A stretch of DNA of 64,000 nt from Cryomorphaceae bacterium. Its GTDB lineage: Bacteria > Bacteroidota > Bacteroidia > Flavobacteriales > ECT2AJA-044. The notes beneath the pieces are model-generated. The model made no database searches. It saw only the letters and a list, made by a program, of their open reading frames with translations, and was not told where the DNA came from. This document shows positions 48,975 to 59,125 of the stretch, one piece after another. Within the stretch, counting starts at the first letter, position 1. Each line of letters starts with the position of its first letter. The DNA lies in contig CP059070.1 of assembly GCA_017798125.1 (NCBI GenBank), positions 682,001 to 746,000 of the forward strand. The letters are read 5' to 3'. The position numbers and the translations under genes are program-made.

Positions 48975-48990
48975 TGAGGTCCCGACCGGA
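48975..48990. repeat. Left attachment repeat (attL)
   Basis: TGAGGTCCCGACCGGA is identical to 59053-59068 and corresponds to the last 14 nt of tRNA-Cys plus two following bases. Confidence 0.88.
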
Positions 48991-49180
48991 CTTCAACTTA
49001 CAAAGACGCCTCTTAACCCAAGTCTTATCACTCTCACATGAACACTAATTATTTGAGCTATAGGGGGGTATTTAGGCAAAACATTATAGTTCGATGGGGT
49101 TGGTTACACTTGCAAGAGATTGTAAATATGTTGTGCACTTGCTGTGCAAAGTATATCTTTAATCTGTACTTTTCAATACT

Positions 49181-50467
49181 ATGGCGTCTGTAAAATTTTT
49201 CCCACGGGGCAAAAATTCAAACATCTACGTACGGCTGTCGATAAGCCGAGGAAATGCTCCCATGGCTAACACCGGACTAGTAGTTGAGCCCTCGAGGTGG
49301 AGCAAGGCCAAAGGCTTGCCTCTTGGCCGAAACGCATTTGATAAAGAGCTCTTATTAAAGCTCAAAGGACTAGAGGCTCATCTCATCGAGAATTACAATC
49401 GCTCACATGCTCAAGGAGAACGGTTCAATACGGCTTGGTTAAAAGAGGTCATAAACTCCTTCTTTAATCGCAAAGAAGAGGTTCAACTTGACTATTTAAC
49501 AGAGTATGGGCGACACTACACCAATAAAAACCGGAAGGCTAATGAGGAGACTAAAAAGGACTATCTCGATTGTATTCAGAGGCTTGAAGGTTACGAAGGC
49601 CATTTAGGTAAACGTCTATTGATGCACGAAATCAATGTTGCCTTTCAAGACGACTATACTGAATACCTGTCTGACCACGCAAACCTAGCGGATAGTACTA
49701 TCCAAAAAGAGCTTTCGAGGATTAGATCCTTTGGGGCGCACGCATACAAACATGGATTCGATGTTGGGATTGGGCTTAGGTCTATTAAACCCGAAAGCGT
49801 TAAAACCTACAACACCTATCTAACTTTTGAAGACCTGGGCTTGGTTGAAGTTTTAGACCTCAGCACAAAGCCAGTACATGAAGACGTTAGGGACTGGCTA
49901 ATCATAGGTTGTTACACTGGGCAAAGGATAAGTGATCTGTTCCGAATGAAGAAGCGAATGATAAAGGAAATCGATGGGTACAAGTACATTGAGCTTACGC
50001 AAAAGAAAAACTATGAAAATAGAGGTGTTAGGGTAAGAATTCCGATACATCCTTGGGTTAAAGAAGTTCTCAAAAGACGAGGTGACTTTCCGGGTTTATG
50101 GAGCTCTTCAAATGGAAGTAACGCTACTATTTTTAACCGTTATGTAAAAGAGGTTTGCAAACTGGCAGGTATCAATGAACTAACTGAAGGAGCTTTACGC
50201 AACCCTAGCACTGGCAAGTATGAGAAAGGAGAGTACGAGAAATGGCGTCTCATTAGCTCACATACATGCCGCAGATCTTTTGCAACAAACTTTTACGGTC
50301 AACCAGGATACACCACTCCACTCTTAATGAGTATTACGGGGCATAGAAAGGAGGAGACTTTTCTCAAGTATATCAAGAAGGCACCCATCGACTACTCGAA
50401 ACAGCTCGCTGAACTATGGCAAAATGAAGGGCCTCGAGGAGAGGATATTGTGACCATATACGACTAA
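49181..50467 (+). CDS. Tyrosine recombinase (integrase)
   Basis: The 428-residue protein has an Arm-DNA-binding start (KFFPRGKNSNIYVRLSISRGN), a SAM-like core-binding domain (~110-210) and a catalytic domain. The catalytic Arg is in CYTGQRISDLFRM (~248), His-x-x-Arg in SHTCRRSFATNF (~360), His in TGHRKEETF (~387) and the nucleophile Tyr in FLKYIKKA (~396). It lies ~190 bp inside the left att repeat and should catalyse integration at tRNA-Cys. This is the Bacteroidota phage/ICE integrase subfamily. Confidence 0.95.
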   Translation: MASVKFFPRGKNSNIYVRLSISRGNAPMANTGLVVEPSRWSKAKGLPLGRNAFDKELLLKLKGLEAHLIENYNRSHAQGERFNTAWLKEVINSFFNRKEEVQLDYLTEYGRHYTNKNRKANEETKKDYLDCIQRLEGYEGHLGKRLLMHEINVAFQDDYTEYLSDHANLADSTIQKELSRIRSFGAHAYKHGFDVGIGLRSIKPESVKTYNTYLTFEDLGLVEVLDLSTKPVHEDVRDWLIIGCYTGQRISDLFRMKKRMIKEIDGYKYIELTQKKNYENRGVRVRIPIHPWVKEVLKRRGDFPGLWSSSNGSNATIFNRYVKEVCKLAGINELTEGALRNPSTGKYEKGEYEKWRLISSHTCRRSFATNFYGQPGYTTPLLMSITGHRKEETFLKYIKKAPIDYSKQLAELWQNEGPRGEDIVTIYD

Positions 50468-50481
50468 ATCTATAGCCGTTA

Positions 50482-51351
50482 ATGAAAAAACACATTTCCC
50501 GATTAAAAGAGGCTCTCAGAGGAATGCCTGACCAAACAAGAATACGGACTCTTGTAGAGATTTGCGCTGAGGAATTAACCCCCTATGAACTATGGCAAGT
50601 TATTGATGAGGTAATAAGGTACTATGCCAATGGTCCGAGGTACGCGGAAGGCCCTAACCAAGAGATTCGCCTTTGGTGGTCGATGCAGAGTGTGTTTTCT
50701 CCCCTTTTCTTTAGTCTTAGTGCTTCAACAATAACTGAAGACTTTGAAAGGAAATATTCATCGGTGACCAACTCGACCGGGAAACAGCTAATTAGTTCTG
50801 AAGAAAATCGCAATGCTCTTTCGACCTATTTTTTGAATCAATGGAGGGTTGAAGTCGAAAGCGAACTAGATTCTTACCCAAAAGAAGATCGCTTTTTATG
50901 GAAGGTCTTCTTTGATTCATTAGAGGGGCTCAACGAAGCCTTACGATTAGAGGTGAGAGAACTCAGTGAAATTTCAAATAACCGGGGAAAAGCATCAGAT
51001 ACAAATAATGCTAGAACAGGGGAATACAAAACACATGAAGGCGGGTATGGGCAAATAATTATTTCCCCAAAGGGCCTAGAGATTCTAGAATTCGTCATCC
51101 CTCGCTTGGGTAGTAAGAAGATTGACATCCATGTAGTCTATCGAGAGCTGGAGTATCAAGGTGAGTTAAAAAAGGGCACCCCGCATCGTGACTTCGTAGA
51201 GTATTTGGCCTTCCATTGGGGAAATATCATAGAGGATATAAACCCCGAATTTAAGATACCTACCTACGAAACCCTTAAAAACCGTTCGAAGCTAGCTGTA
51301 GAGCGAGTTAAAGGTCTTATCGAAAAAGCACCGCATAGTCCCTCCCCCTAA
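50482..51351 (+). CDS. Unknown protein of the integrated element
   Basis: The 289-residue protein is not recognised. The N-terminus is helical (MKKHISRLKEALRGMPDQTR, LVEICAEELTPYELWQVIDEV). The middle is charged and low in known motifs, and the C-terminus (ISPKGLEILEFVIPRLG, VERVKGLIEKAPHS) may hold a helical domain. It starts 14 bp after the integrase stop, so it is probably co-transcribed. A role in regulation or stabilisation of the element is possible, without evidence. Confidence 0.6.
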   Translation: MKKHISRLKEALRGMPDQTRIRTLVEICAEELTPYELWQVIDEVIRYYANGPRYAEGPNQEIRLWWSMQSVFSPLFFSLSASTITEDFERKYSSVTNSTGKQLISSEENRNALSTYFLNQWRVEVESELDSYPKEDRFLWKVFFDSLEGLNEALRLEVRELSEISNNRGKASDTNNARTGEYKTHEGGYGQIIISPKGLEILEFVIPRLGSKKIDIHVVYRELEYQGELKKGTPHRDFVEYLAFHWGNIIEDINPEFKIPTYETLKNRSKLAVERVKGLIEKAPHSPSP

Positions 51352-51425
51352 TTGGTGAACTTCCTCTCCCTGGAAGGAGAGTAATCTGCTCGAGTTTTGC
51401 CTTATAACCAATAACTGTAAGCAAA

Positions 51426-51716
51426 ATGAGCAACCAAGTAACACTTGTACAACTTGACCCTGAAGCCTTTAAAAAAGAGGTTCTTGCGGGCTTCCGTAAA
51501 GAGGTTGAAACGCTACGTAAAGAGTTTCAGCCAAAAGAGCCTCAAGTTTTCCTTACTCGAAATGAGGTCGCGGAATTATTCAAGATCAACCTTTCAACCG
51601 TTCATCATTGGACCAAGTCAGGCCGTCTGATGGCCTACGGAATTGGGGGCCGGGTATACTATAAACGGAAGGAGGTAGAGGCCCTAGCATTACCATTAAA
51701 GGTAAACAATGATTGA
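51426..51716 (+). CDS. AlpA/excisionase-like HTH protein
   Basis: The 96-residue protein has residues ~1-35 as a Lys/Glu-rich helix and residues ~38-92 as a MerR/HTH_17-type winged helix: FLTRNEVAELFKINLSTVHHWTKSGRLMAYGIGGRVYYKRKEVEAL. Such proteins act as excisionases or as AlpA-type activators of excision in integrative elements. It overlaps the replication gene by 8 bp. A 6-bp hairpin (CTCTCC/GGAGAG, 51364-51381) lies upstream with no T run. Confidence 0.82.
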   Translation: MSNQVTLVQLDPEAFKKEVLAGFRKEVETLRKEFQPKEPQVFLTRNEVAELFKINLSTVHHWTKSGRLMAYGIGGRVYYKRKEVEALALPLKVNND

Positions 51717-53148
51717 TTTCGTAAAGCTCGAAATTACTGGATCACGGCGAGATCGCATACCAGAACGCCTTAATATGGGAGGTATTATTGCGACGGATGG
51801 TGACGGTCTAGTAATTTCGGAGAAGCTATATCTAGAGGAAAACGGACTCGAGATCATTGTTTCACCTAGCGGGCGAACCATTCTAAAGGGAAGTGTCCAC
51901 AAATACGGACATGACGGAGTTAATTATTCGGATCTGCGGATTGGCGAGGCCGAGGCAATATTGTGCTCGATAGCTAACTGGTTGGGGGTGAAACTTTCCG
52001 ATATGCGCATTATCCAAGCCGAGATTGGCTTGAATATTGAACCTCCTGCCGAGTCGAAGAGAATTGTGAGAAACCTTCTGTTCCACAAGACAAAGCTCCC
52101 AAGACGTTACGAAAGTGGCAAAAAGGAAACCCGTCCTATCGAGTCAAAAGAATTCCAGTACAGCCACTTCTCCGTAAAAGCCTATGATAAAGGGGCTCAA
52201 TACCGAAGGGAATACAATATAAATAATGAAATCTTCCGACATGAAATACGGTTCGAGTATTCTGAACTAAAGAAGTATGGAATCGAACATACTGAGGACC
52301 TCATCGAAGCCTTGAGCTTGAATAATTGCTCCCTGCCCAAACTGACAAATTATTTGATTTCTCAATGGGACCACTATCTTTTTTACGACTGGACAGTGCT
52401 TAATATGGTGCCTGGAGCCGAGAGATACGCTTCGATAGACTTTTGGTCCGAATTAGGGCGGGACAACCGTGTTTACCACAAAACCCGACTAAATCAAACA
52501 ATACGGCAAACTGAAAACAATCTAAAAGACTCAATCCGTCGGTTACTTGACGCAAAAGCAAGAGAATTATCACGCCCAATTTCAACGTTTGAAGTATTTG
52601 GATTAAATCAGTCCGATACTACGCAAACTGAAGCTTTAGGTAAACCTTCTTTTTGCGTAGTACACCCTGACCTGTACTGTCCTGTTACAGGTGTCAAAAT
52701 TTCCATGCAAGTTCAAGGGACGATTCTGCTCACTGTATTTGGCCTTGAGTGGTACGAAAAAAACGAGCCTGAAATTTTCAAGAAGATTGCTGATCATCTA
52801 GAAAATATTGATCCGCTTAAAATCAATATTAAGAGGGCTAGAACTGTCATGTCCATGGAGATTAGGATTAGAAGGTATTTTAAAAAAACTGGTGCTAGAA
52901 GACTCTTTTGTTCATTAACCGGTTTACCCAGACCTCCAAGAGAGCACTATTGGACGGACTACAGTGAAGACGTCTTATCCAGGATGGACCTTAAATGGTA
53001 CAAAGAGCACGACCCCGAAACCTTCCAAGAATTAATAAGGGTCTTTCCAGCTCGCAACCTACTAAGTGACCCGGCGTGTCCAAGGAGGATCCATGAAGCA
53101 ATGAAACGAAGAAAGAAGTCGCTTTTATCATCACGAAAAACTAGATAA
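51709..53148 (+). CDS. Phage/plasmid replication initiator-like protein
   Basis: The 479-residue protein has an N-terminal part (MIDFVKLEITGS, FSVKAYDKGAQYRREYNI, FRHEIRFEYSELKKYG) that resembles Phage_CRI/gene II-type initiators of filamentous phages and small Bacteroidota plasmids. This would nick a replication origin; the catalytic Tyr is not identified. The C-terminal ~170 residues carry two similar units, FCVVHPDLYCPVTGV...GLEWYEKNEPEIFKKI and RLFCSLTGLPRPP...DLKWYKEHDPETFQEL. It could instead be a relaxase-type protein. Autonomous replication of the excised circle is inferred. Confidence 0.62.
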   Translation: MIDFVKLEITGSRRDRIPERLNMGGIIATDGDGLVISEKLYLEENGLEIIVSPSGRTILKGSVHKYGHDGVNYSDLRIGEAEAILCSIANWLGVKLSDMRIIQAEIGLNIEPPAESKRIVRNLLFHKTKLPRRYESGKKETRPIESKEFQYSHFSVKAYDKGAQYRREYNINNEIFRHEIRFEYSELKKYGIEHTEDLIEALSLNNCSLPKLTNYLISQWDHYLFYDWTVLNMVPGAERYASIDFWSELGRDNRVYHKTRLNQTIRQTENNLKDSIRRLLDAKARELSRPISTFEVFGLNQSDTTQTEALGKPSFCVVHPDLYCPVTGVKISMQVQGTILLTVFGLEWYEKNEPEIFKKIADHLENIDPLKINIKRARTVMSMEIRIRRYFKKTGARRLFCSLTGLPRPPREHYWTDYSEDVLSRMDLKWYKEHDPETFQELIRVFPARNLLSDPACPRRIHEAMKRRKKSLLSSRKTR

Positions 53149-53156
53149 ACAACCAT

Positions 53157-53519
53157 ATGAGCCCGCCAAAAGGAAACAGTAACGCCGAAAAATACTCTCT
53201 TGAATACGCACGGTCGATTTCAAAAAAAGCCCTTGATATATGTGGCCCAGACTGCTACTACCTTTCTCAAATAGCCGAAGAATGCGGCGTCTACAGACAA
53301 CTGTTTAACTACTTATTGAAGAAGTTCGAATACGACGACGAAGTATTTTTAAATCTTAAAAGATTAAAAAATAGGTGTGAGGCAATCATCCTTCAAGAGA
53401 CCGAAAGCGGTCGTTTAAATCAACGCGTTGGGATATTCTTGCTCAAGTCTGCCCACGGTTTTCGAACAGCCTCTAATTATCCTAAATCAACTCACAATGA
53501 TCAACTTTCAGTGAAATGA
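53157..53519 (+). CDS. Small-terminase (gp3-type)-like HTH protein
   Basis: The 120-residue protein has an HTH (YYLSQIAEECGVYRQLFNYLLKKF, ~38-60) followed by a helix pair and the tail RVGIFLLKSAHGFRT (~90-105). This matches the pattern of phage DNA-packaging gp3-type small terminases (...sGk...fiLKn.hGw). It may steer packaging of the element into a helper phage capsid, as TerS proteins do in phage satellites; a plain DNA-binding role is the alternative. It lies 8 bp after the initiator gene and overlaps the next gene by 4 bp. Confidence 0.5.
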   Translation: MSPPKGNSNAEKYSLEYARSISKKALDICGPDCYYLSQIAEECGVYRQLFNYLLKKFEYDDEVFLNLKRLKNRCEAIILQETESGRLNQRVGIFLLKSAHGFRTASNYPKSTHNDQLSVK

Positions 53520-53842
53520 AGTTTTGTTTTTTCCGCTATAAAAAGAAAGCCCCGGCGGTCCTATCCCCTAGAAAGCAACTTAAAAATGTCTTGAAAATGA
53601 GTAGCTCATCACCACGAATTTCGAAAACGAGTCTTCGCGATTTAGGATTTAAAAAAATCAATGAGACTGACTATAAATCACCCGTTGGTGATTACTACTA
53701 CGATACATACCTCAAAGGAGTATATATAAACGGCATGAATGGCGAGCCTCAATTCATTTTGGATCGGGATATTTCCGATTTATTTGACCTGATACACGTT
53801 CTCGAAGTCTTGAACGGGACTAATCTAGATCTACGCTTTTGA
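53516..53842 (+). CDS. Small unknown protein of the integrated element
   Basis: The 108-residue protein starts MKFCFFRYKKKAPAVLSPRKQ, basic at the N-terminus. The rest (SKTSLRDLGFKKINETDYKS, QFILDRDISDLFDLIHVLEVLNGT) resembles a small alpha/beta domain with no family recognised. Its ATG overlaps the small-terminase-like gene by 4 bp. It ends 29 bp from the convergent Nudix gene; an imperfect inverted repeat (ACGGT...ACCGT) in the gap may terminate both. Confidence 0.5.
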   Translation: MKFCFFRYKKKAPAVLSPRKQLKNVLKMSSSSPRISKTSLRDLGFKKINETDYKSPVGDYYYDTYLKGVYINGMNGEPQFILDRDISDLFDLIHVLEVLNGTNLDLRF

Positions 53843-53871
53843 AACGGTTCTAGCCATTATCGAGACCGTAT

Positions 53872-54288
53872 TCATAGTATTTCATCAAAAGAATTGACAA
53901 ACTTTTGATCTCCCTTTGTGAATGAATAAAGTGGAAACTTACTAGGTTCCACCCAAATAGCGTTAACGTGTTCTTGAAGCCGCATGGAGCCTGGTCTTGA
54001 GCAATAGCAAAGAATGAATTTTAATTGGTAGATGAATTCTCCGACTTGGACTTCGTCACTAAATACTTCTTGTCTTCCGCGAACAGATAATCCCAACTCC
54101 TCGAACACTTCCCTCTCAGCAGTTTTCAGAAGCTGTTCATTTTGCCTTCTTTTCCCGCCAGGAAACTCCCATTTTCCTCTATCTCTTCCATCTCCCTTTT
54201 GACAAATAAGAACCCTTGACCATTCGTCTTGGATGACAGCGCAGGCGACGTCAATTCTTATCATAAAACCTCCTTCTATGCTTTTCAA
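53872..54288 (-). CDS. Nudix hydrolase (MutT-like)
   Basis: The 138-residue protein has the Nudix box GGKRRQNEQLLKTAEREVFEELGL at ~44-67 (G-x5-E-x7-REVFEELGL). It begins MKSIEGGFMIRIDVACAVIQDE, or from the second Met (MIRIDVACAVI). MutT-type enzymes hydrolyse (modified) nucleoside triphosphates such as 8-oxo-dGTP or 5-methyl-dCTP. It is the last gene of the four-gene operon 56509-53872 and overlaps the HNH gene by 38 bp, so the enzyme probably works with the nucleases, e.g. by removing a modified nucleotide. Substrate unknown. Confidence 0.88.
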   Translation of the reverse strand: MKSIEGGFMIRIDVACAVIQDEWSRVLICQKGDGRDRGKWEFPGGKRRQNEQLLKTAEREVFEELGLSVRGRQEVFSDEVQVGEFIYQLKFILCYCSRPGSMRLQEHVNAIWVEPSKFPLYSFTKGDQKFVNSFDEIL

Positions 54289-55219
54289 GATATGGTCTCG
54301 CCTTAGAAGGTACTTTTATTTTAATGTCCGAATGAACTCCTAATGCCTTTAAGTCTTCTTGTTCCGTTTTATCCGATAAAAGAATCTGACCTTCATTGCT
54401 AAATGATATTAAGTGACTGTCGAATAAGGCGTCAATATTAGGAGATAGAAGAATGCCATTGTTCACATCTAGGCGTTCGTTTTCCGTACTTTCTGACCAA
54501 GGCACAATGTGCGAAGCGATTAAAAGCCTTATATCTCCACATCCTGTGACCGGACATTTGCCATCCCAGGAGTCTATTACTTGCTGACGGAAGTACCCTT
54601 GACCAACTCTTGAAGTAACTAGTCCTTTCCTTTCCGTAGTATTTGGCTTTGTATACCTTTTAACACGAGCTACGGATATCCTATTTGATTTATCGATCTG
54701 AGTTTTTGAAAGTTTGTTAGCTTTTTCTGGCCTCCAAAGATAAATCCTCATTAGTGCCTTTGATTCCGGCGTCTCTACGTAGTCAATACTTCGAAAAACC
54801 ATATGAACCGGTCTAGATGTGCCTTTTTCATACTCTATGAACTCTAGTTCTCCACAATATATAAATGGTTGAGTTTTGCTTTTGACCCGCCTTCTTTCTC
54901 TAGCAAAAAGATAGACTCGTCTTTGCCTGGAAAATATCTCCTTGATTAATGGAGTTTCTGGATGTTGAGTAGTTTGAGAATCCCAATGAAAAAACTCACC
55001 CTGGAAAAAGTCATCAAAATGAAACCTCTCTTCCTTCCCTTCCTTTTCCAAGTCGACAAAAAGAAAGGTGTTCTTCGTTCCCGGAAGAGTATATATTCCC
55101 TCTCGAACTAAGGCGATATTTGGTTCCGAAAAGATCTGGGCTAAGTCTTTTTTAGAGTAGCCCGATCCAAGTATAACTCCGTTCATCCTATCCATTCCGT
55201 TTTCGCCTATGAAATTCAT
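54251..55219 (-). CDS. DUF3427-like / HNH endonuclease
   Basis: The 322-residue protein has an N-terminal ~190 residues resembling DUF3427 (PUA-like): FVDLEKEGKEERFHFDD and FFHWDSQTTQHPETPLIKEI, then VYLFARERRRVK and ELEFIEYEKGTSRPVH. A C-terminal HNH_2-type domain (~215-300) has KCPVTGCGDIRLLIASHIVPW and LLSPNIDALFDSHLISFSN. In that last motif the usual His is an Asn, which may alter metal binding. It is predicted to cut DNA after reading base or backbone chemistry; this is inference. It overlaps the gene on each side (38 bp and 32 bp). Confidence 0.72.
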   Translation of the reverse strand: MNFIGENGMDRMNGVILGSGYSKKDLAQIFSEPNIALVREGIYTLPGTKNTFLFVDLEKEGKEERFHFDDFFQGEFFHWDSQTTQHPETPLIKEIFSRQRRVYLFARERRRVKSKTQPFIYCGELEFIEYEKGTSRPVHMVFRSIDYVETPESKALMRIYLWRPEKANKLSKTQIDKSNRISVARVKRYTKPNTTERKGLVTSRVGQGYFRQQVIDSWDGKCPVTGCGDIRLLIASHIVPWSESTENERLDVNNGILLSPNIDALFDSHLISFSNEGQILLSDKTEQEDLKALGVHSDIKIKVPSKARPYLEKHRRRFYDKN

Positions 55220-56168
55220 AATGCCATTTGAAATACCGCCTTGTTTCGTTTTTGAAATAACTACACTCGTTACCGGCCAACGCTTCTATTTCGGATTTAA
55301 GTTCTGGTGAAGAAATAGATGGGTAAAAAGCCTTAAATACTCCTGAGTCGTCCACAACTAGATATCCTTTTTCGAACAACTCATCACATCCAAACTTGCA
55401 CATTGGAAAAACAACATTCGAATCAAGCTTCTCTTCCTGAGAACACTCAGATCGCTTCTTAATATGCGCAGTAACTAAAAAAGAAATTGGATACTCTTTG
55501 GAGCAGCAAGCGCATATGCTAACGGTCGATTTACCAAAGAGTATCTTCTTCAAGAAAGACTGTTCCCTTCTACGCTTAGAAATGATCTCGGCTTCGCTAG
55601 TTTCAAGAGATTCTAGCTTCATTATTAGAGCTCTATACTCGTCCTCTGAAATTTCATCAGAAAACACCTCGCTTTGAAGACTATAGTGTTCCACAAAAGG
55701 ATTACTGCGTTCAGCAGCTAGGACATTAAAAGCTTGAACAACATAGTTTTCCTTATAGCCTACCAGTTTGTTAAAAGAAGCATAAGAAATTCGTATACGC
55801 TCTAATTCTTCAAGAAAATACATGTATTCCCAGGTTGCACCATCTGGCAAGCTTCCCCAAAAACTCTTTGCTGCATCTTGATTCCTGGTCTTTGCGACAA
55901 CTGTCGCGCTAGCAAAAAAGAACTTGTTCTTAGCAAAGAGTACCTTGTCTCCTATTGATATTTTTCTCCATTTCGAGGGGTTATTGCCTTTGGGTGTAAC
56001 TCCCCAAAACATAGCCGATCCGCTAGGATATATTCTTTCCAAACCCTCCATTAAGTCAGAATCAAAAAAGGAATTGAATCCCTTCAATGGAACCCTGTTC
56101 TCGACAGTTTTGAGAAAGTGGGCTAAAGAATCTGAGTTCGCACAAGGCTGGAGTACGATGTTGCTCAT
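55188..56168 (-). CDS. EVE/PUA-like domain HNH endonuclease
   Basis: The 326-residue protein has residues ~45-160 (WRKISIGDKVLFAKNKFFFASATV, then VVAKTRNQDAAKSFWG and ISYASFNKLVGYKENYVVQAFNVL) that look like an EVE/PUA-type reader domain of modified bases. Residues ~215-290 form an HNH-type zinc-bound nuclease: ICACCSKEYPISFLVTAHIKKRSE then FPMCKFGCDELFEKGYLVVD. Reader-HNH pairs are known among modification-dependent restriction enzymes. It overlaps the MazG-like gene by 4 bp and the DUF3427-HNH gene by 32 bp. Confidence 0.7.
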   Translation of the reverse strand: MSNIVLQPCANSDSLAHFLKTVENRVPLKGFNSFFDSDLMEGLERIYPSGSAMFWGVTPKGNNPSKWRKISIGDKVLFAKNKFFFASATVVAKTRNQDAAKSFWGSLPDGATWEYMYFLEELERIRISYASFNKLVGYKENYVVQAFNVLAAERSNPFVEHYSLQSEVFSDEISEDEYRALIMKLESLETSEAEIISKRRREQSFLKKILFGKSTVSICACCSKEYPISFLVTAHIKKRSECSQEEKLDSNVVFPMCKFGCDELFEKGYLVVDDSGVFKAFYPSISSPELKSEIEALAGNECSYFKNETRRYFKWHYEFHRRKRNG

Positions 56169-56509
56169 CGTTTATTATACTTTGTCGCATTTCCTTTTGA
56201 CAAAGACACGGGATATTTTTGGGCATTCAATTTAATCTTGTCTTTGGCAGCTTCTAAAAGGTCAACTTCTAGTTTATCCGATAAGCGAATTAGGTAAAGA
56301 AAAATGTCCGCAATCTCTTGCTTGCAGTGATCGTAGTCTTTTGGACTTATTCTCTCTTTTAATGATTCCTCTTCGGTTAGCCACTGAAATATTTCAACAA
56401 GCTCTCCAGTCTCTGCTGAAAGTGCCATTACAAGATTTTTTGGATTATGATATTTGTCCCATTCTCTATCAAGAGCGAACTTTCTCAGTTCAATAATAAG
56501 TTCTTCCAT
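56165..56509 (-). CDS. MazG-like nucleotide pyrophosphohydrolase
   Basis: The 114-residue all-helical protein has the MazG/dCTPP1 signature: LVMALSAETGELVEIFQWLTEEE (~26-48, E-x2-E) and KQEIADIFLYLIRLSDKLEVDLL (~65-87, E-x2-D). Such proteins hydrolyse NTPs or modified dNTPs to monophosphates and pyrophosphate. It is the first gene of the operon. TAGATTTTG (56514-56522 complement), a near -7 box, lies only a few bases before its ATG. As a defence partner it could strip phage-modified nucleotides or deplete the pool; not proven. Confidence 0.85.
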   Translation of the reverse strand: MEELIIELRKFALDREWDKYHNPKNLVMALSAETGELVEIFQWLTEEESLKERISPKDYDHCKQEIADIFLYLIRLSDKLEVDLLEAAKDKIKLNAQKYPVSLSKGNATKYNKR

Positions 56510-56691
56510 CTATCAAAATCTATTTAAATCAGCCTGCATTGTAGTAATAGCTGAAATTAAGGAATTCTGGTTCTCTCAATATCTCCTTTCTGAATTGAGT
56601 AAACATGACAATACCTTCCTAAAGGTAAAGCGCTAGTGTACAGGATATTAGGGTCAATCGAGCCGGGCCAACGTGTTGTTGATGCGCAGCA
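56510..56691. other. Gap between the two putative defence operons
   Basis: These 182 bp hold the promoter of the MazG-led operon (TAGATTTTG near 56514) and the 3' end of the CoiA-led operon. No clear terminator stem with T run was found. Confidence 0.45.
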
Positions 56692-57459
56692 CTATAGGCC
56701 CTTTGTAAAAGTTCGCCACTGCTCCCTAAGGACCTCTAGTTGATTCATAAACCTGAGGTACCTATGTTCCCATTCGCCATTAATAACCGCTTTGATAAAA
56801 GCATTTCGCGAAAACTCGGCGACAACGAAATATCTCCCTATAAAGCCAGGGAACAAGCAATAGAGGAATTTTCTCGGATCAGAATGATCTTCCAAGTCTC
56901 TTTGACCTAGAAAATCAAAGATTACGGGAACTTTTGATTGAGTCCAAGATTCTGGAAAAGCTTCCGAACAAAAGTCTACTCTAAACACGTGAGGCCTTCC
57001 TAGGTTAATGAATTCTTCCCTGGCCTTGAGAAACTTCGGGTAGTCCCTCTTAAGCCGAGTCCCATCTATCACCCATATCATATTATTGTAGAATTCTTCC
57101 CTTGCTATTCTTTCTTCTTCCTCAATCCTAGAGTGTTGAAACTCTAAGATTAGCCCTTTACTAGTTGCCACATCTGCTCGGGAATATCCTTTTTCCGAAT
57201 TCTCTTTAAACGTAACCTCCTGCCATTCCGAAGGGAATAGATCCTTCCACATCCTATGCCAAGCAGTCTCGTTTTCTTTTGAAGAGTCACATGCTCGATG
57301 AACAAGATGAGCCCAATGCCATATTCTTTGTTTGCCACAACGGGCAACTACCTCCATACTACAAACAGGACATGTCGCCTTTAGCCCTTTTATAGCCTCA
57401 ACTCTCTTACCGTCGGCAATTGCATACTTCATCTCGTAAAGGTGAAATAGTTTATTCAC
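56692..57459 (-). CDS. CoiA-like zinc ribbon/nuclease protein
   Basis: 255 residues (start 57459, or the second Met 57432: MKYAIADGKRVEAI). The N-terminus holds a zinc ribbon CPVCSMEVVARCGKQRIWHWAHL (~30-55). The middle has the PD-(D/E)XK-like core YSRADVATSKGLILEFQHSRIEEEE (~90-115, with Asp, Glu and Gln), as in competence protein CoiA. In this context, next to unknown and membrane proteins, it may be a restriction-type nuclease rather than a competence factor. It starts 5 bp after the small membrane protein gene. Confidence 0.75.
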   Translation of the reverse strand: MNKLFHLYEMKYAIADGKRVEAIKGLKATCPVCSMEVVARCGKQRIWHWAHLVHRACDSSKENETAWHRMWKDLFPSEWQEVTFKENSEKGYSRADVATSKGLILEFQHSRIEEEERIAREEFYNNMIWVIDGTRLKRDYPKFLKAREEFINLGRPHVFRVDFCSEAFPESWTQSKVPVIFDFLGQRDLEDHSDPRKFLYCLFPGFIGRYFVVAEFSRNAFIKAVINGEWEHRYLRFMNQLEVLREQWRTFTKGL

Positions 57460-57464
57460 CCATG

Positions 57465-57719
57465 TTACTCGTCTTCTGTATCTGAAGGGAAGTAGTGCCT
57501 AAATACCTGAAAAACTGTACCCCCCATTAAGACCTCGATTGCGCCGTATACTATTTGTTTACCCAGGGAGTCTTCATGGATCAAATTGTACAAAACGATA
57601 AAGAAAGCAACGATTGCAGCAAGCACCAAAACTCCTTTCAAAAACAGATTCCAAAGCAAGACATATACTTTGGCTTGATCTTCTGTTATTCTATTGTTTT
57701 TGTTTGAGGCTTGTGTCAC
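57465..57719 (-). CDS. Small two-TM protein in the CoiA operon
   Basis: The 84-residue protein has two membrane helices (~15-40, YVLLWNLFLKGVLVLAAIVAFFIVLYNL, and ~52-68, QIVYGAIEVLMGGTVFQVFRHYF) with charged ends. Small membrane proteins beside nucleases in mobile elements are often defence effectors, but no specific family is recognised. Its ATG overlaps the upstream zinc-ribbon gene by 4 bp. Confidence 0.65.
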   Translation of the reverse strand: MTQASNKNNRITEDQAKVYVLLWNLFLKGVLVLAAIVAFFIVLYNLIHEDSLGKQIVYGAIEVLMGGTVFQVFRHYFPSDTEDE

Positions 57720-58090
57720 TTCTTATTCTTTCTAAAACGATAGAATTCCCGAATACGAAGCTGATTTCGGTTGAACGAATAGACGTCACGTTCTAAATGA
57801 AGACATATATCACAATCTAATCTTTCGGGAATATCTCCCTCTTTTTTGAAATGATCTATCATTCTCCCACAACTTGGGCACTCGACTCCTACACGTTTAT
57901 CAAAATACCCTTCTCTAACTGCCATCTCGCAAACCAGTTTAGCTAGTCTAGTCGGCCAGTTAAAGAAGCTACGCACGTTTTCAACATATATCCTCTCTGG
58001 ATCTGTTCTTAGAATAAGCTCTCTCTTACTCTGAATAACCTCTCCCAAAAAAGAAGATTCAATTAGATTGAAGAATCGATAGAATGACAT
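57716..58090 (-). CDS. Zinc-ribbon protein in the CoiA operon
   Basis: 124 residues. Two CxxC pairs (CPSCGRMIDHFKKE and RLDCDICLHLE, ~70-98) suggest a bound zinc. The N-terminus is helical with hydrophobic and charged residues. No family recognised. It overlaps the first gene of the operon by 32 bp and the next by 4 bp. Confidence 0.62.
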   Translation of the reverse strand: MSFYRFFNLIESSFLGEVIQSKRELILRTDPERIYVENVRSFFNWPTRLAKLVCEMAVREGYFDKRVGVECPSCGRMIDHFKKEGDIPERLDCDICLHLERDVYSFNRNQLRIREFYRFRKNKK

Positions 58091-58910
58091 TGGTTATTTG
58101 ATTAGCAGTTTTTGGATACAAGATGAAGGATACTTTTCCATTTGATGGATCAACTGTGAAATGATCGGGCATCTCATCATCATCAACAAGATACTTAAAT
58201 ATCATTTTGTCTAATGGCCTGGTAACCATGCTAGCGTAATCAGCAGGGTATTGTTCTTTAAAAGTAAAGCCCTCGTCCATTGCTTCTGTAGCCATAGAAC
58301 GGTCTTTCTTCCATTTTGCATACCGAGAATCAATAATATCGCGATTCCATAAGTCTTTGACTCCTCTGTTAATATCGGTTACAATAGGTGTCCCAAAAGC
58401 ACCAAGTACTCTTTGTATAATTTCCGTTTCTTCTAAATCTTTTTCAACATGAACGACTTCGGTATTCCCCTGAAAATATTTGCGGAGACTTCGCTCCAAA
58501 ATTGTCATAAAAACAATCATTTGATCGCCTACTAAGTGGATTCGAAATGGTTGACGAAAAACAATATTATGACGGCCAAATGGTTGAATTGTTGTCGCTG
58601 TATAAGTGACTTCAGCATAACCTGTAATCCTCCTAACCCCATCATTCTCACGATCTGAAAATATCGTGAACGGGATATTCCGAGAATCCACTTGCCTCCA
58701 TCTTGTCTGTCGAACACTAAAGATATGACAATGCGTCTTTGTCCATTCTAAGTTGCTTAACACATTGGCTAAAACTACTGCGTTGGCGTTATTCCTAACT
58801 ACTTGGTTCAGGACTGCAGTGGCAGCCCCCGTTTCATCGAAGACGTCCTTAACTACTTTAATTGGCAATACACTTAGCAGTCTTTTAAGAATGTCGTCTT
58901 CAGTGTTCAT
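58059..58910 (-). CDS. Unknown first gene of the CoiA operon
   Basis: The 283-residue protein is not recognised. The central region (EVTYTATTIQPFGRHNIVFRQPFRIHLVGDQMIVFMTILERSLRKYF) looks like a beta-rich domain followed by helices. The end (DHFTVDPSNGKVSFILYPKTANQITNVILSIL) is also structured. No signal peptide or TM. As the first gene of a four-gene unit with membrane and nuclease members it may be a sensor or scaffold; this is speculation. Confidence 0.6.
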   Translation of the reverse strand: MNTEDDILKRLLSVLPIKVVKDVFDETGAATAVLNQVVRNNANAVVLANVLSNLEWTKTHCHIFSVRQTRWRQVDSRNIPFTIFSDRENDGVRRITGYAEVTYTATTIQPFGRHNIVFRQPFRIHLVGDQMIVFMTILERSLRKYFQGNTEVVHVEKDLEETEIIQRVLGAFGTPIVTDINRGVKDLWNRDIIDSRYAKWKKDRSMATEAMDEGFTFKEQYPADYASMVTRPLDKMIFKYLVDDDEMPDHFTVDPSNGKVSFILYPKTANQITNVILSILQSN

Positions 58911-59003
58911 ATGGACAAGTTAGGTGGTTATATACCGTAAAAGTAATTAATCCTAAAGGATATATAATGACGAGTTTGTTGTGCAAATATTGCGCACAAA
59001 AAA

Positions 59004-59037
59004 AGCCCAACAACGCTATATTCAACATTGTCAGGCT
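59004..59037. terminator. Bidirectional terminator at the element's right end, now serving tRNA-Cys
   Basis: AGCCCAACAACG (59004-59015) and CATTGTCAGGCT (59026-59037) form a 12-bp stem with G-U pairs, flanked by A-rich and T-rich runs. On the minus strand it follows tRNA-Cys within about 20 bp, replacing the tRNA's displaced original terminator. Confidence 0.7.
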
Positions 59038-59052
59038 TTTACTAAAAGAAAC

Positions 59053-59068
59053 TGAGGTCCCGACCGGA
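59053..59068. repeat. Right attachment repeat (attR)
   Basis: TGAGGTCCCGACCGGA, identical to 48975-48990, lies in the 3' end of the intact tRNA-Cys gene. Confidence 0.88.
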
Positions 59069-59125
59069 TTCGAACCGGTGTACGAGCTTTTGCAGAGCTC
59101 TGCCTAGCCGCTCGGCCACAGGACC
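59055..59125 (-). tRNA. tRNA-Cys (GCA)
   Basis: A 71-nt cloverleaf on the minus strand: acceptor GGTCCTG / CGGGACC, anticodon stem GAGCT/AGCTC around CTGCAAA (anticodon GCA), T arm ACCGG-TTCGAAT-CCGGT, discriminator U73 as usual for Cys. CCA is not encoded. It is the integration target of the element. Confidence 0.96.

What the first reader, a model, noticed from the sequence alone, without database searches (positions are those of the whole stretch)
53872..56509. Candidate new defence operon: MazG-like, two reader-HNH nucleases, Nudix
Four genes overlap by 4, 32 and 38 bp in the order MazG-like NTP pyrophosphohydrolase, EVE/PUA-like-HNH, DUF3427-like-HNH, Nudix hydrolase. Two nucleotide-cleaning enzymes enclose two HNH nucleases whose N-terminal domains look like readers of modified bases. 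This suggests a modification-dependent restriction system in which the hydrolases keep the same modified nucleotide out of the host's own DNA, or deplete dNTPs on infection. I do not recognise this exact combination as a named system.
Basis: inference. Interest (0 to 1): 0.82.

Follow-up and report, generated by a model that had tools for sequence, protein, structure and literature searches.

The report
Restriction operon with nucleotide-cleaning enzymes
A mobile island in a Bacteroidota genome carries two predicted enzymes that cut DNA with chemically modified bases, each beside an enzyme of a family known to destroy modified DNA building blocks; such pairings recur across bacteria, suggesting that these defences come with a device protecting the host's own DNA.

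Summary
The four minus-strand genes are real and form one operon in a 10.1-kb tRNA-Cys integrative island. The exact four-gene set was not found elsewhere, but both halves recur. (1) A DCTPP1-type dCTP pyrophosphatase (MazG-like) sits directly upstream of an EVE-like-HNH nuclease in 32 of 54 genomic and 27 of 30 viral/prophage relatives (several phyla), against 0 of 29 HNH genes of the same family lacking the EVE domain. (2) A PDC-S07-family Nudix lies directly before SauUSI-type DUF3427 restriction helicases in 16 Bacteroidota genomes, and overlaps an SRA-HNH gene in one. Here DUF3427 (SRA fold, nearest SauUSI) is fused to a VcaM4I-like HNH. The pyrophosphatase keeps the seven DCTPP1 pocket and metal residues tested, including both Trp that contact 5-methyl-cytosine. 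DCTPP1 and the Nudix NudG are published 5-methyl-dCTP hydrolases, and both readers belong to 5mC/5hmC-binding folds. Best reading: two modification-dependent (type IV) restriction modules, each with its own modified-dCTP sanitiser that prevents self-restriction. The host has no C5-cytosine methyltransferase, but 28 of 49 other carriers do, so the target is not simply any 5mC. I found no paper describing the MazG pairing; MutT beside SauUSI was noted once. All function is inferred.

The parts
56165..56509 (-). MazG-like all-alpha NTP pyrophosphatase of the dCTP pyrophosphatase 1 (DCTPP1/RS21-C6) type; module 1 hydrolase
   Evidence: PF12643 2.3e-11; DCTPP1/RS21-C6 chains 1.2e-24 by sequence; W47, E63, E66, W73, E95, D98, Y102 (human numbering) all kept
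55188..56168 (-). EVE-like (EVE/YTH fold) + HNH nuclease; module 1 modification-dependent endonuclease
   Evidence: AlphaFold model pLDDT 94; nearest folds TgMcrB N-terminal domain Z 15.4 and VcaM4I; HNH matches VcaM4I 3.6e-12; 4-bp overlap with MazG
54251..55219 (-). DUF3427 (SRA fold) + HNH nuclease; module 2 modification-dependent endonuclease; true start may be 55195 or 55186
   Evidence: PF11907 and PF13391; reader nearest SauUSI TRD Z 13.3, HNH nearest VcaM4I Z 16.3; SauUSI pocket residues F841, D858, W868 kept
53872..54264 (-). Nudix hydrolase (MutT/NudG-like, PADLOC family PDC-S07); module 2 hydrolase; the ORF can be extended to a TTG at 54288
   Evidence: PF00293 1.9e-13; PDC-S07 2.9e-25; intact Nudix box GKRRQNEQLLKTAEREVFEELG; Shine-Dalgarno AGAAGGAGG before ATG 54264
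54269..54277 (-). Shine-Dalgarno sequence AGAAGGAGG of the Nudix gene
   Evidence: sequence
48975..59075 (.). Integrative island carrying the operon, between two copies of the tRNA-Cys 3' end
   Evidence: 23-nt direct repeat 48975-48997 / 59053-59075, 87% identical with a 16-nt identical core; tRNA-Cys at 59054-59125
49181..50467 (+). Tyrosine integrase of the island
   Evidence: PF00589 and PF13102
59054..59125 (-). tRNA-Cys (GCA), integration target
   Evidence: ARAGORN

Best explanation
[quoted passage not shown] Module 1 is a DCTPP1-type dCTP pyrophosphatase plus an EVE-like-HNH endonuclease; module 2 is a DUF3427 (SRA-fold)-HNH endonuclease plus a MutT/NudG-like Nudix hydrolase. Each reader flips a modified base, most likely a 5-substituted cytosine (5mC or 5hmC), out of incoming phage or plasmid DNA, and its HNH domain cuts. 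The hydrolases convert modified dCTPs to monophosphates, so that modified nucleotides from phage metabolism or from recycled phage DNA do not enter host DNA and make it a target. Shown: gene order, families, folds, kept catalytic and pocket residues, recurrence of both pairings, island anatomy. Inferred: base identity, cleavage, substrates, and the self-protection role.
For: MazG directly upstream of EVE-HNH in 32/54 genomic and 27/30 viral loci, usually overlapping by 4 bp or within tens of bases, against 0/29 HNH genes of the family without EVE, with similar pairs on actinobacterial and Bacillus-group plasmids. The linked MazG is a dedicated paralogue: many actinobacterial carriers also hold a second, more distant copy elsewhere. 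DCTPP1 pocket kept in the window protein and in 67 aligned relatives; DCTPP1 prefers 5-methyl-dCTP, with Trp47/Trp73 touching the methyl group (PMC4491611). Nudix before DUF3427 helicases in 16 genomes (base-level in three) and overlapping an SRA-HNH gene in L218; the Nudix family NudG is a 5-methyl-dCTP hydrolase (PMC5158307); PMC10742078 names Orf135 and DCTPP1/RS21-C6 as 5-methyl-dCTP sanitisers. Readers: EVE (VcaM4I binds 5mC/5hmC, PMC7897488) and DUF3427 = SauUSI SRA domain (S-5mC/5hmC-NGS, PMC7913695), with its flipped-cytosine Asp and Trp kept. Own genome has no PF00145 C5-methyltransferase. MazG + EVE-HNH is followed by an SRA-HNH in two other loci (L054, L059).
Against: 28 of 49 EVE-HNH carriers encode a C5-cytosine methyltransferase, so not every 5mC can be a target. 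22 of 54 genomic EVE-HNH loci lack the linked MazG. The Nudix is far below the NudG equivalog cut-off (47.8 against 156 bits) and by sequence is as near to MutT. DCTPP1 His38, which docks the cytosine, is Leu here. The nearest fold to the EVE-like domain (TgMcrB) is YTH-like, a fold that can bind N6-methyladenine. No activity, expression or phage data exist for this locus.
Confidence: 0.55

Rival explanations
1. The hydrolases are antiviral effectors: on infection they deplete dCTP or other dNTPs to starve phage replication, and the nucleases are a parallel arm.
For: DCTPP1 also hydrolyses plain dCTP (PMC4491611). Depletion of dNTPs is an established defence strategy (my knowledge).
Against: No sensor or activation module is seen. 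The hydrolases travel with reader-nucleases rather than alone, and they belong to families with published activity on modified dCTP.
Confidence: 0.15
2. The readers recognise something other than a 5-substituted cytosine, for example N6-methyladenine for the EVE/YTH-like domain, and the hydrolases clean a different nucleotide.
For: Nearest fold of the EVE-like domain is TgMcrB (Z 15.4), with YTH m6A readers next (Z about 9-10). C5-methyltransferases coexist with the system in 28 of 49 carriers.
Against: The partner hydrolase is of the DCTPP1 type with its pocket kept. DUF3427 keeps the SauUSI Asp and Trp that are modelled to hold the flipped cytosine.
Confidence: 0.15
3. The hydrolases act on the phage: they remove 5-hydroxymethyl-dCTP from the infected cell so that phage DNA is made with plain cytosine and becomes open to ordinary restriction.
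For: Some phages make hydroxymethyl-dCTP (my knowledge); the DCTPP1 family accepts 5-substituted dCTPs.
Against: It would work against the linked nucleases, which need the modification. No ordinary restriction enzyme was seen in the operon.
Confidence: 0.07
4. MazG and Nudix restrain the nucleases by direct binding, in a toxin-antitoxin manner, and their enzymatic activity is incidental.
For: Translational overlap is typical of partner proteins; VcaM4I without its EVE domain and linker is a toxic nuclease (PMC7897488).
Against: Catalytic residues of both hydrolases are intact; 22 of 54 EVE-HNH genes lack a linked MazG.
Confidence: 0.06
5. Unrelated cargo genes stacked by chance in a variable island.
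For: The exact four-gene order was not found elsewhere.
Against: Two neighbouring pairs recur far above chance in independent genomes.
Confidence: 0.04

Closest known systems
VcaM4I and other EVE-HNH modification-dependent restriction enzymes (PMC7897488)
   Same: N-terminal EVE-fold reader with a C-terminal HNH of the same family; about 310-330 aa, single ORF
   Different: This EVE subfamily is divergent (no Pfam hit, nearer in fold to TgMcrB), its HNH carries extra conserved Cys residues, and it is linked to a dCTP pyrophosphatase, which the VcaM4I paper does not mention
SauUSI (type IV restriction helicase with a C-terminal DUF3427/SRA domain; PMC7913695, PMC3874153)
   Same: Same reader domain (Z 13.3) with main pocket residues kept; many Bacteroidota SauUSI-type genes have the same kind of Nudix upstream
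   Different: PLD nuclease and SF2 helicase are replaced by a single HNH nuclease, so probably no ATP-driven translocation
DCTPP1 / RS21-C6 dCTP pyrophosphatase
   Same: Best PDB sequence match (1.2e-24); metal-binding residues and both Trp of the methyl-cytosine pocket kept
   Different: Part of a restriction operon instead of general metabolism; His38 is Leu
NudG (Orf135) and MutT Nudix hydrolases; PADLOC candidate PDC-S07
   Same: Nudix box and overall family; PDC-S07 match 2.9e-25
   Different: Below the equivalog cut-offs for both NudG and MutT; the substrate is unknown. PADLOC lists PDC-S07 as a candidate of its own, whereas here it accompanies a type IV nuclease
SRA-HNH enzymes (TagI type)
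   Same: SRA-fold reader plus HNH, and in L218 overlapped by a PDC-S07 Nudix
   Different: DUF3427 is a separate SRA-fold family, nearest to SauUSI

Membership tests
EVE-HNH modification-dependent endonucleases (VcaM4I type) | N-terminal EVE/PUA-like reader fold | tested here: met
   Model pLDDT 94; TgMcrB N-terminal domain Z 15.4, rmsd 2.7, 154 residues; VcaM4I first by Foldseek E 1.2e-11
EVE-HNH modification-dependent endonucleases (VcaM4I type) | C-terminal HNH nuclease homologous to VcaM4I | tested here: met
   Profile match to 6yex 3.6e-12; His234 and four Cys invariant in 46 relatives
EVE-HNH modification-dependent endonucleases (VcaM4I type) | VcaM4I base-pocket residues P24, W82, Y130 | not tested
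   No residue-level alignment of the two EVE domains was made
EVE-HNH modification-dependent endonucleases (VcaM4I type) | Cleavage that depends on 5mC/5hmC | not testable with these tools
   Needs biochemistry
SauUSI-type restriction enzymes | DUF3427/SRA-fold target-recognition domain | tested here: met
   PF11907 1.2e-12; SauUSI 7clg Z 13.3, rmsd 3.3, 136 residues
SauUSI-type restriction enzymes | Pocket residues Tyr831, Phe841, Ile842, Asp858, Trp868 | tested here: inconclusive
   Phe, Asp and Trp kept, Ile842 is Val, Tyr831 is Ile (Val in many SauUSI-type relatives)
SauUSI-type restriction enzymes | PLD nuclease and SF2 helicase domains | tested here: not met
   322-aa protein with an HNH nuclease instead; not filed as SauUSI
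DCTPP1-type dCTP pyrophosphatases | Metal motif E63, E66, E95, D98 and pocket W47, W73, Y102 | tested here: met
   All seven identical in the window protein, near-invariant in 67 aligned relatives
DCTPP1-type dCTP pyrophosphatases | His38 contacting the cytosine | tested here: not met
   Leu8 at the ungapped equivalent position; for this reason 'DCTPP1-type' here means nearest family by sequence, not proven same specificity
DCTPP1-type dCTP pyrophosphatases | Hydrolysis of dCTP / 5-methyl-dCTP | not testable with these tools
   Needs enzyme assay
Nudix hydrolases | Nudix box GX5EX7REUXEEXGU | tested here: met
   GKRRQNEQLLKTAEREVFEELG
NudG (5-methyl-dCTP/CTP pyrophosphohydrolase) equivalog | NCBIfam equivalog score | tested here: not met
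   47.8 bits against a cut-off of 156; not filed as NudG
PADLOC PDC-S07 | Match to the PDC-S07 model | tested here: met
   2.9e-25; but the model also matches common chromosomal Nudix/MutY-like genes

The most novel reading that the evidence does not exclude
Modification-dependent restriction enzymes with different readers (EVE, DUF3427, SRA) are commonly built as two-part systems: a nuclease that cuts DNA with a modified base, plus a matching hydrolase (DCTPP1-type MazG or NudG/MutT-type Nudix) that removes the same base's triphosphate from the host pool. This would be self-immunity by metabolism, the counterpart of the protective methyltransferase of ordinary restriction-modification systems.
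Probability: 0.45. Interest if true: 0.8.

Novelty: new variant of a known kind. Interest (0 to 1): 0.66.

Why it matters
Type IV restriction enzymes have no partner methyltransferase, so how a host avoids cutting its own DNA after modified nucleotides enter its pools is seldom asked. A recurring dCTP-pyrophosphatase or Nudix partner offers a direct, testable answer, may explain why PADLOC's orphan Nudix candidate PDC-S07 appears in defence scans, and gives an easy genomic handle (MazG plus EVE-HNH) on a large unannotated family of predicted modification-dependent nucleases, with possible use as tools to detect modified cytosine.

Tried and rejected
A close-relative search of viral contigs with the DUF3427-HNH protein found nothing. 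The exact four-gene set was sought through both nucleases in 296 Bacteroidota genomes, 60 relatives, plasmids, and (through EVE-HNH) the genome and viral collections, and was not seen. A depletion of C5-methyltransferases among carriers, expected if any 5mC were cut, was not found (28 of 49 have one). An empty integration site could not be shown: the congeneric genome G444 has the tRNA-Cys close to a contig start, and the sequence beyond the other island end does not match it. Promoter scans gave about the number expected by chance. One alignment (A6) was dropped because MAFFT misplaced the DUF3427 rows; A7 was used instead. Considered and rejected: chance stacking of island cargo (two pairs recur) and membership in SauUSI (domains differ).
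Full report
WHAT IS THERE. The four genes exist on the minus strand of 53872-56509: MazG-like (56165-56509), EVE-like-HNH (55188-56168), DUF3427-HNH (54251-55219) and Nudix (53872-54264 or to 54288). MazG and EVE-HNH overlap by 4 bp. The other overlaps depend on start choice: the Nudix ATG at 54264 has a strong Shine-Dalgarno (AGAAGGAGG), giving a 14-bp overlap instead of 38; DUF3427-HNH has three possible ATGs. The operon lies in a 10.1-kb island between copies of the tRNA-Cys 3' end (48975-48997 and 59053-59075; 16-nt identical core), with a tyrosine integrase at 49181-50467 and an HTH_17 protein at 51426-51716. The one congeneric genome held and 58 other relatives have no such EVE-HNH.

DOMAINS. 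The EVE-like-HNH protein has no Pfam hit, and only 14 of 46 family members reach even HNH_2 at 0.01. An AlphaFold model from 46 sequences (pLDDT 94) shows an N-terminal domain nearest to that of Thermococcus gammatolerans McrB (Z 15.4, rmsd 2.7, 154 residues), then VcaM4I and YTH/EVE proteins. The C-terminal HNH matches VcaM4I (3.6e-12). SauUSI's modelled 5mC pocket is Tyr831, Phe841, Ile842, Trp868 with Asp858 hydrogen-bonding the flipped cytosine (PMC7913695). Mapped through the profile alignment, the window protein has Ile, Phe, Val, Trp and Asp there.

HYDROLASES. The MazG-like protein is by sequence closest to mammalian DCTPP1/RS21-C6 (1.2e-24). Seven of the eight pocket and metal residues listed in PMC4491611 (W47, E63, E66, W73, E95, D98, Y102) are identical in the window protein and near-invariant in 67 aligned relatives; His38 is Leu. 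That paper reports a preference for 5-methyl-dCTP, with Trp47 and Trp73 contacting the methyl group. The Nudix has an intact box. It resembles NudG and MutT but passes neither NCBIfam equivalog cut-off; it matches PADLOC's PDC-S07. E. coli NudG has kcat/Km 1.3e6 for 5-methyl-dCTP against 4.7e4 for CTP (PMC5158307). PMC10742078 names Orf135 (NudG) and RS21-C6/DCTPP1 as sanitisers specific for 5-methyl-dCTP.

RECURRENCE, MODULE 1. A scan of 84,980 species genomes and of IMG/VR with an EVE-HNH alignment gave 54 and 30 loci with the EVE domain. A MazG of this family lies directly upstream on the same strand in 32 of 54 and 27 of 30 (the viral loci include many near-identical prophages). The commonest spacing in genomes is a 4-bp overlap. 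Carriers include Bacteroidota, Bacillota, Actinomycetota, Pseudomonadota, Verrucomicrobiota and candidate-phyla bacteria; plasmids add Streptomyces, Nocardiopsis and a more divergent Peribacillus pair. None of 29 EVE-less HNH genes of the same family in the same loci has it. Many actinobacterial carriers hold two DCTPP1-like genes: the linked copy (E about 1e-46 to 1e-52) and a more distant one elsewhere (about 1e-35 to 1e-39), so the linked copy is a dedicated paralogue.

RECURRENCE, MODULE 2. DUF3427 occurs in 44 of 395 Bacteroidota genomes, mostly in SauUSI-type proteins of about 1,000 aa. My comparison of these places with those of PDC-S07-family Nudix genes finds a same-strand Nudix immediately upstream in 16 of 41 (a lower bound; draft contigs and a truncated list). 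Three were read directly: L219 and L220 overlap, L221 has a 4-base gap. In L218 the same Nudix family overlaps an SRA-HNH gene (PF02182 1.2e-40). DUF3427-HNH itself is rarer: a second genome of the same class (L014), and Hymenobacter and Sinorhizobium plasmids, none with an adjacent Nudix in the stretch examined.

COMBINATION. The exact four-gene set was seen only here. Two other loci, in an uncultured bacterium (L054) and a Streptomyces (L059), have MazG + EVE-HNH followed closely by an SRA-HNH, so joining an EVE reader and an SRA-fold reader is not unique.

MECHANISM. Both readers belong to folds that flip 5mC/5hmC, and each is beside a hydrolase related to families with published 5-methyl-dCTP activity. 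The simplest reading is a nuclease against modified DNA plus a sanitiser that keeps the same modified dCTP out of host DNA. Its weak points are the base identity (the TgMcrB-like fold could read another base), the unassigned Nudix substrate, and the finding that 28 of 49 carriers encode a C5-cytosine methyltransferase, so any 5mC target must be context-restricted or the target is 5hmC or another base. The host itself has no such methyltransferase. Depletion of dCTP as a defence effector remains possible.

WHAT IS KNOWN. No paper in the library holds both 'EVE-HNH' and 'MazG'. Bell et al. 2020 noted, in a figure legend, MutT homologues next to SauUSI homologues (PMC7641849). DUF3427 as a modified-base reader was predicted earlier and is established by the SauUSI structure. 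The window's EVE-HNH and MazG have no meaningful PADLOC 2.0.0 match (only a 0.025 Cas2b hit), and the three EVE-HNH relatives and one MazG relative scanned have none. The enzymes are therefore new members of known kinds, and the coupled architecture is a new variant.

Noticed in passing
L218:2792-6009 (G080): SRA-HNH gene overlapped by a PDC-S07 Nudix and followed by a 626-aa HNH protein without Pfam match: another candidate restriction-plus-sanitiser operon.
   Followed up: partly
L054:5642-7915 and L059:5528-8466: MazG, EVE-HNH, then an SRA-HNH gene: the same doubling of readers as in the window, in other lineages.
   Followed up: partly
PADLOC model PDLC04899 (PDC-S07): The model rings in 162 of 296 Bacteroidota genomes and in E. 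coli, including long MutY-like frames, so it probably over-calls housekeeping genes as defence.
   Followed up: partly
L053:1561-2559, L185:4965-5912, L186:4512-5888: DUF3427 fused to a C-terminal region that looks like a PD-(D/E)XK-type nuclease, in Metabacillus, Proteus and P2/186-like Vibrio phages; in the Vibrio phage L186 next to an ATPase-TOPRIM gene.
   Followed up: no
window 56692-58910 (-): Further island cargo: CoiA-like protein (255 aa), 84-aa membrane protein, zinc-ribbon protein and a 283-aa protein of unknown family.
   Followed up: no
L042:3742-8401 (Peribacillus plasmid): MazG-like plus HNH gene next to two DNA cytosine methyltransferases, a possible conflict with 5mC targeting.
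   Followed up: no
L074:4840-5874 and L083:7237-8205: Extra HNH proteins with an uncharacterised N-terminal domain next to EVE-HNH genes.
   Followed up: no
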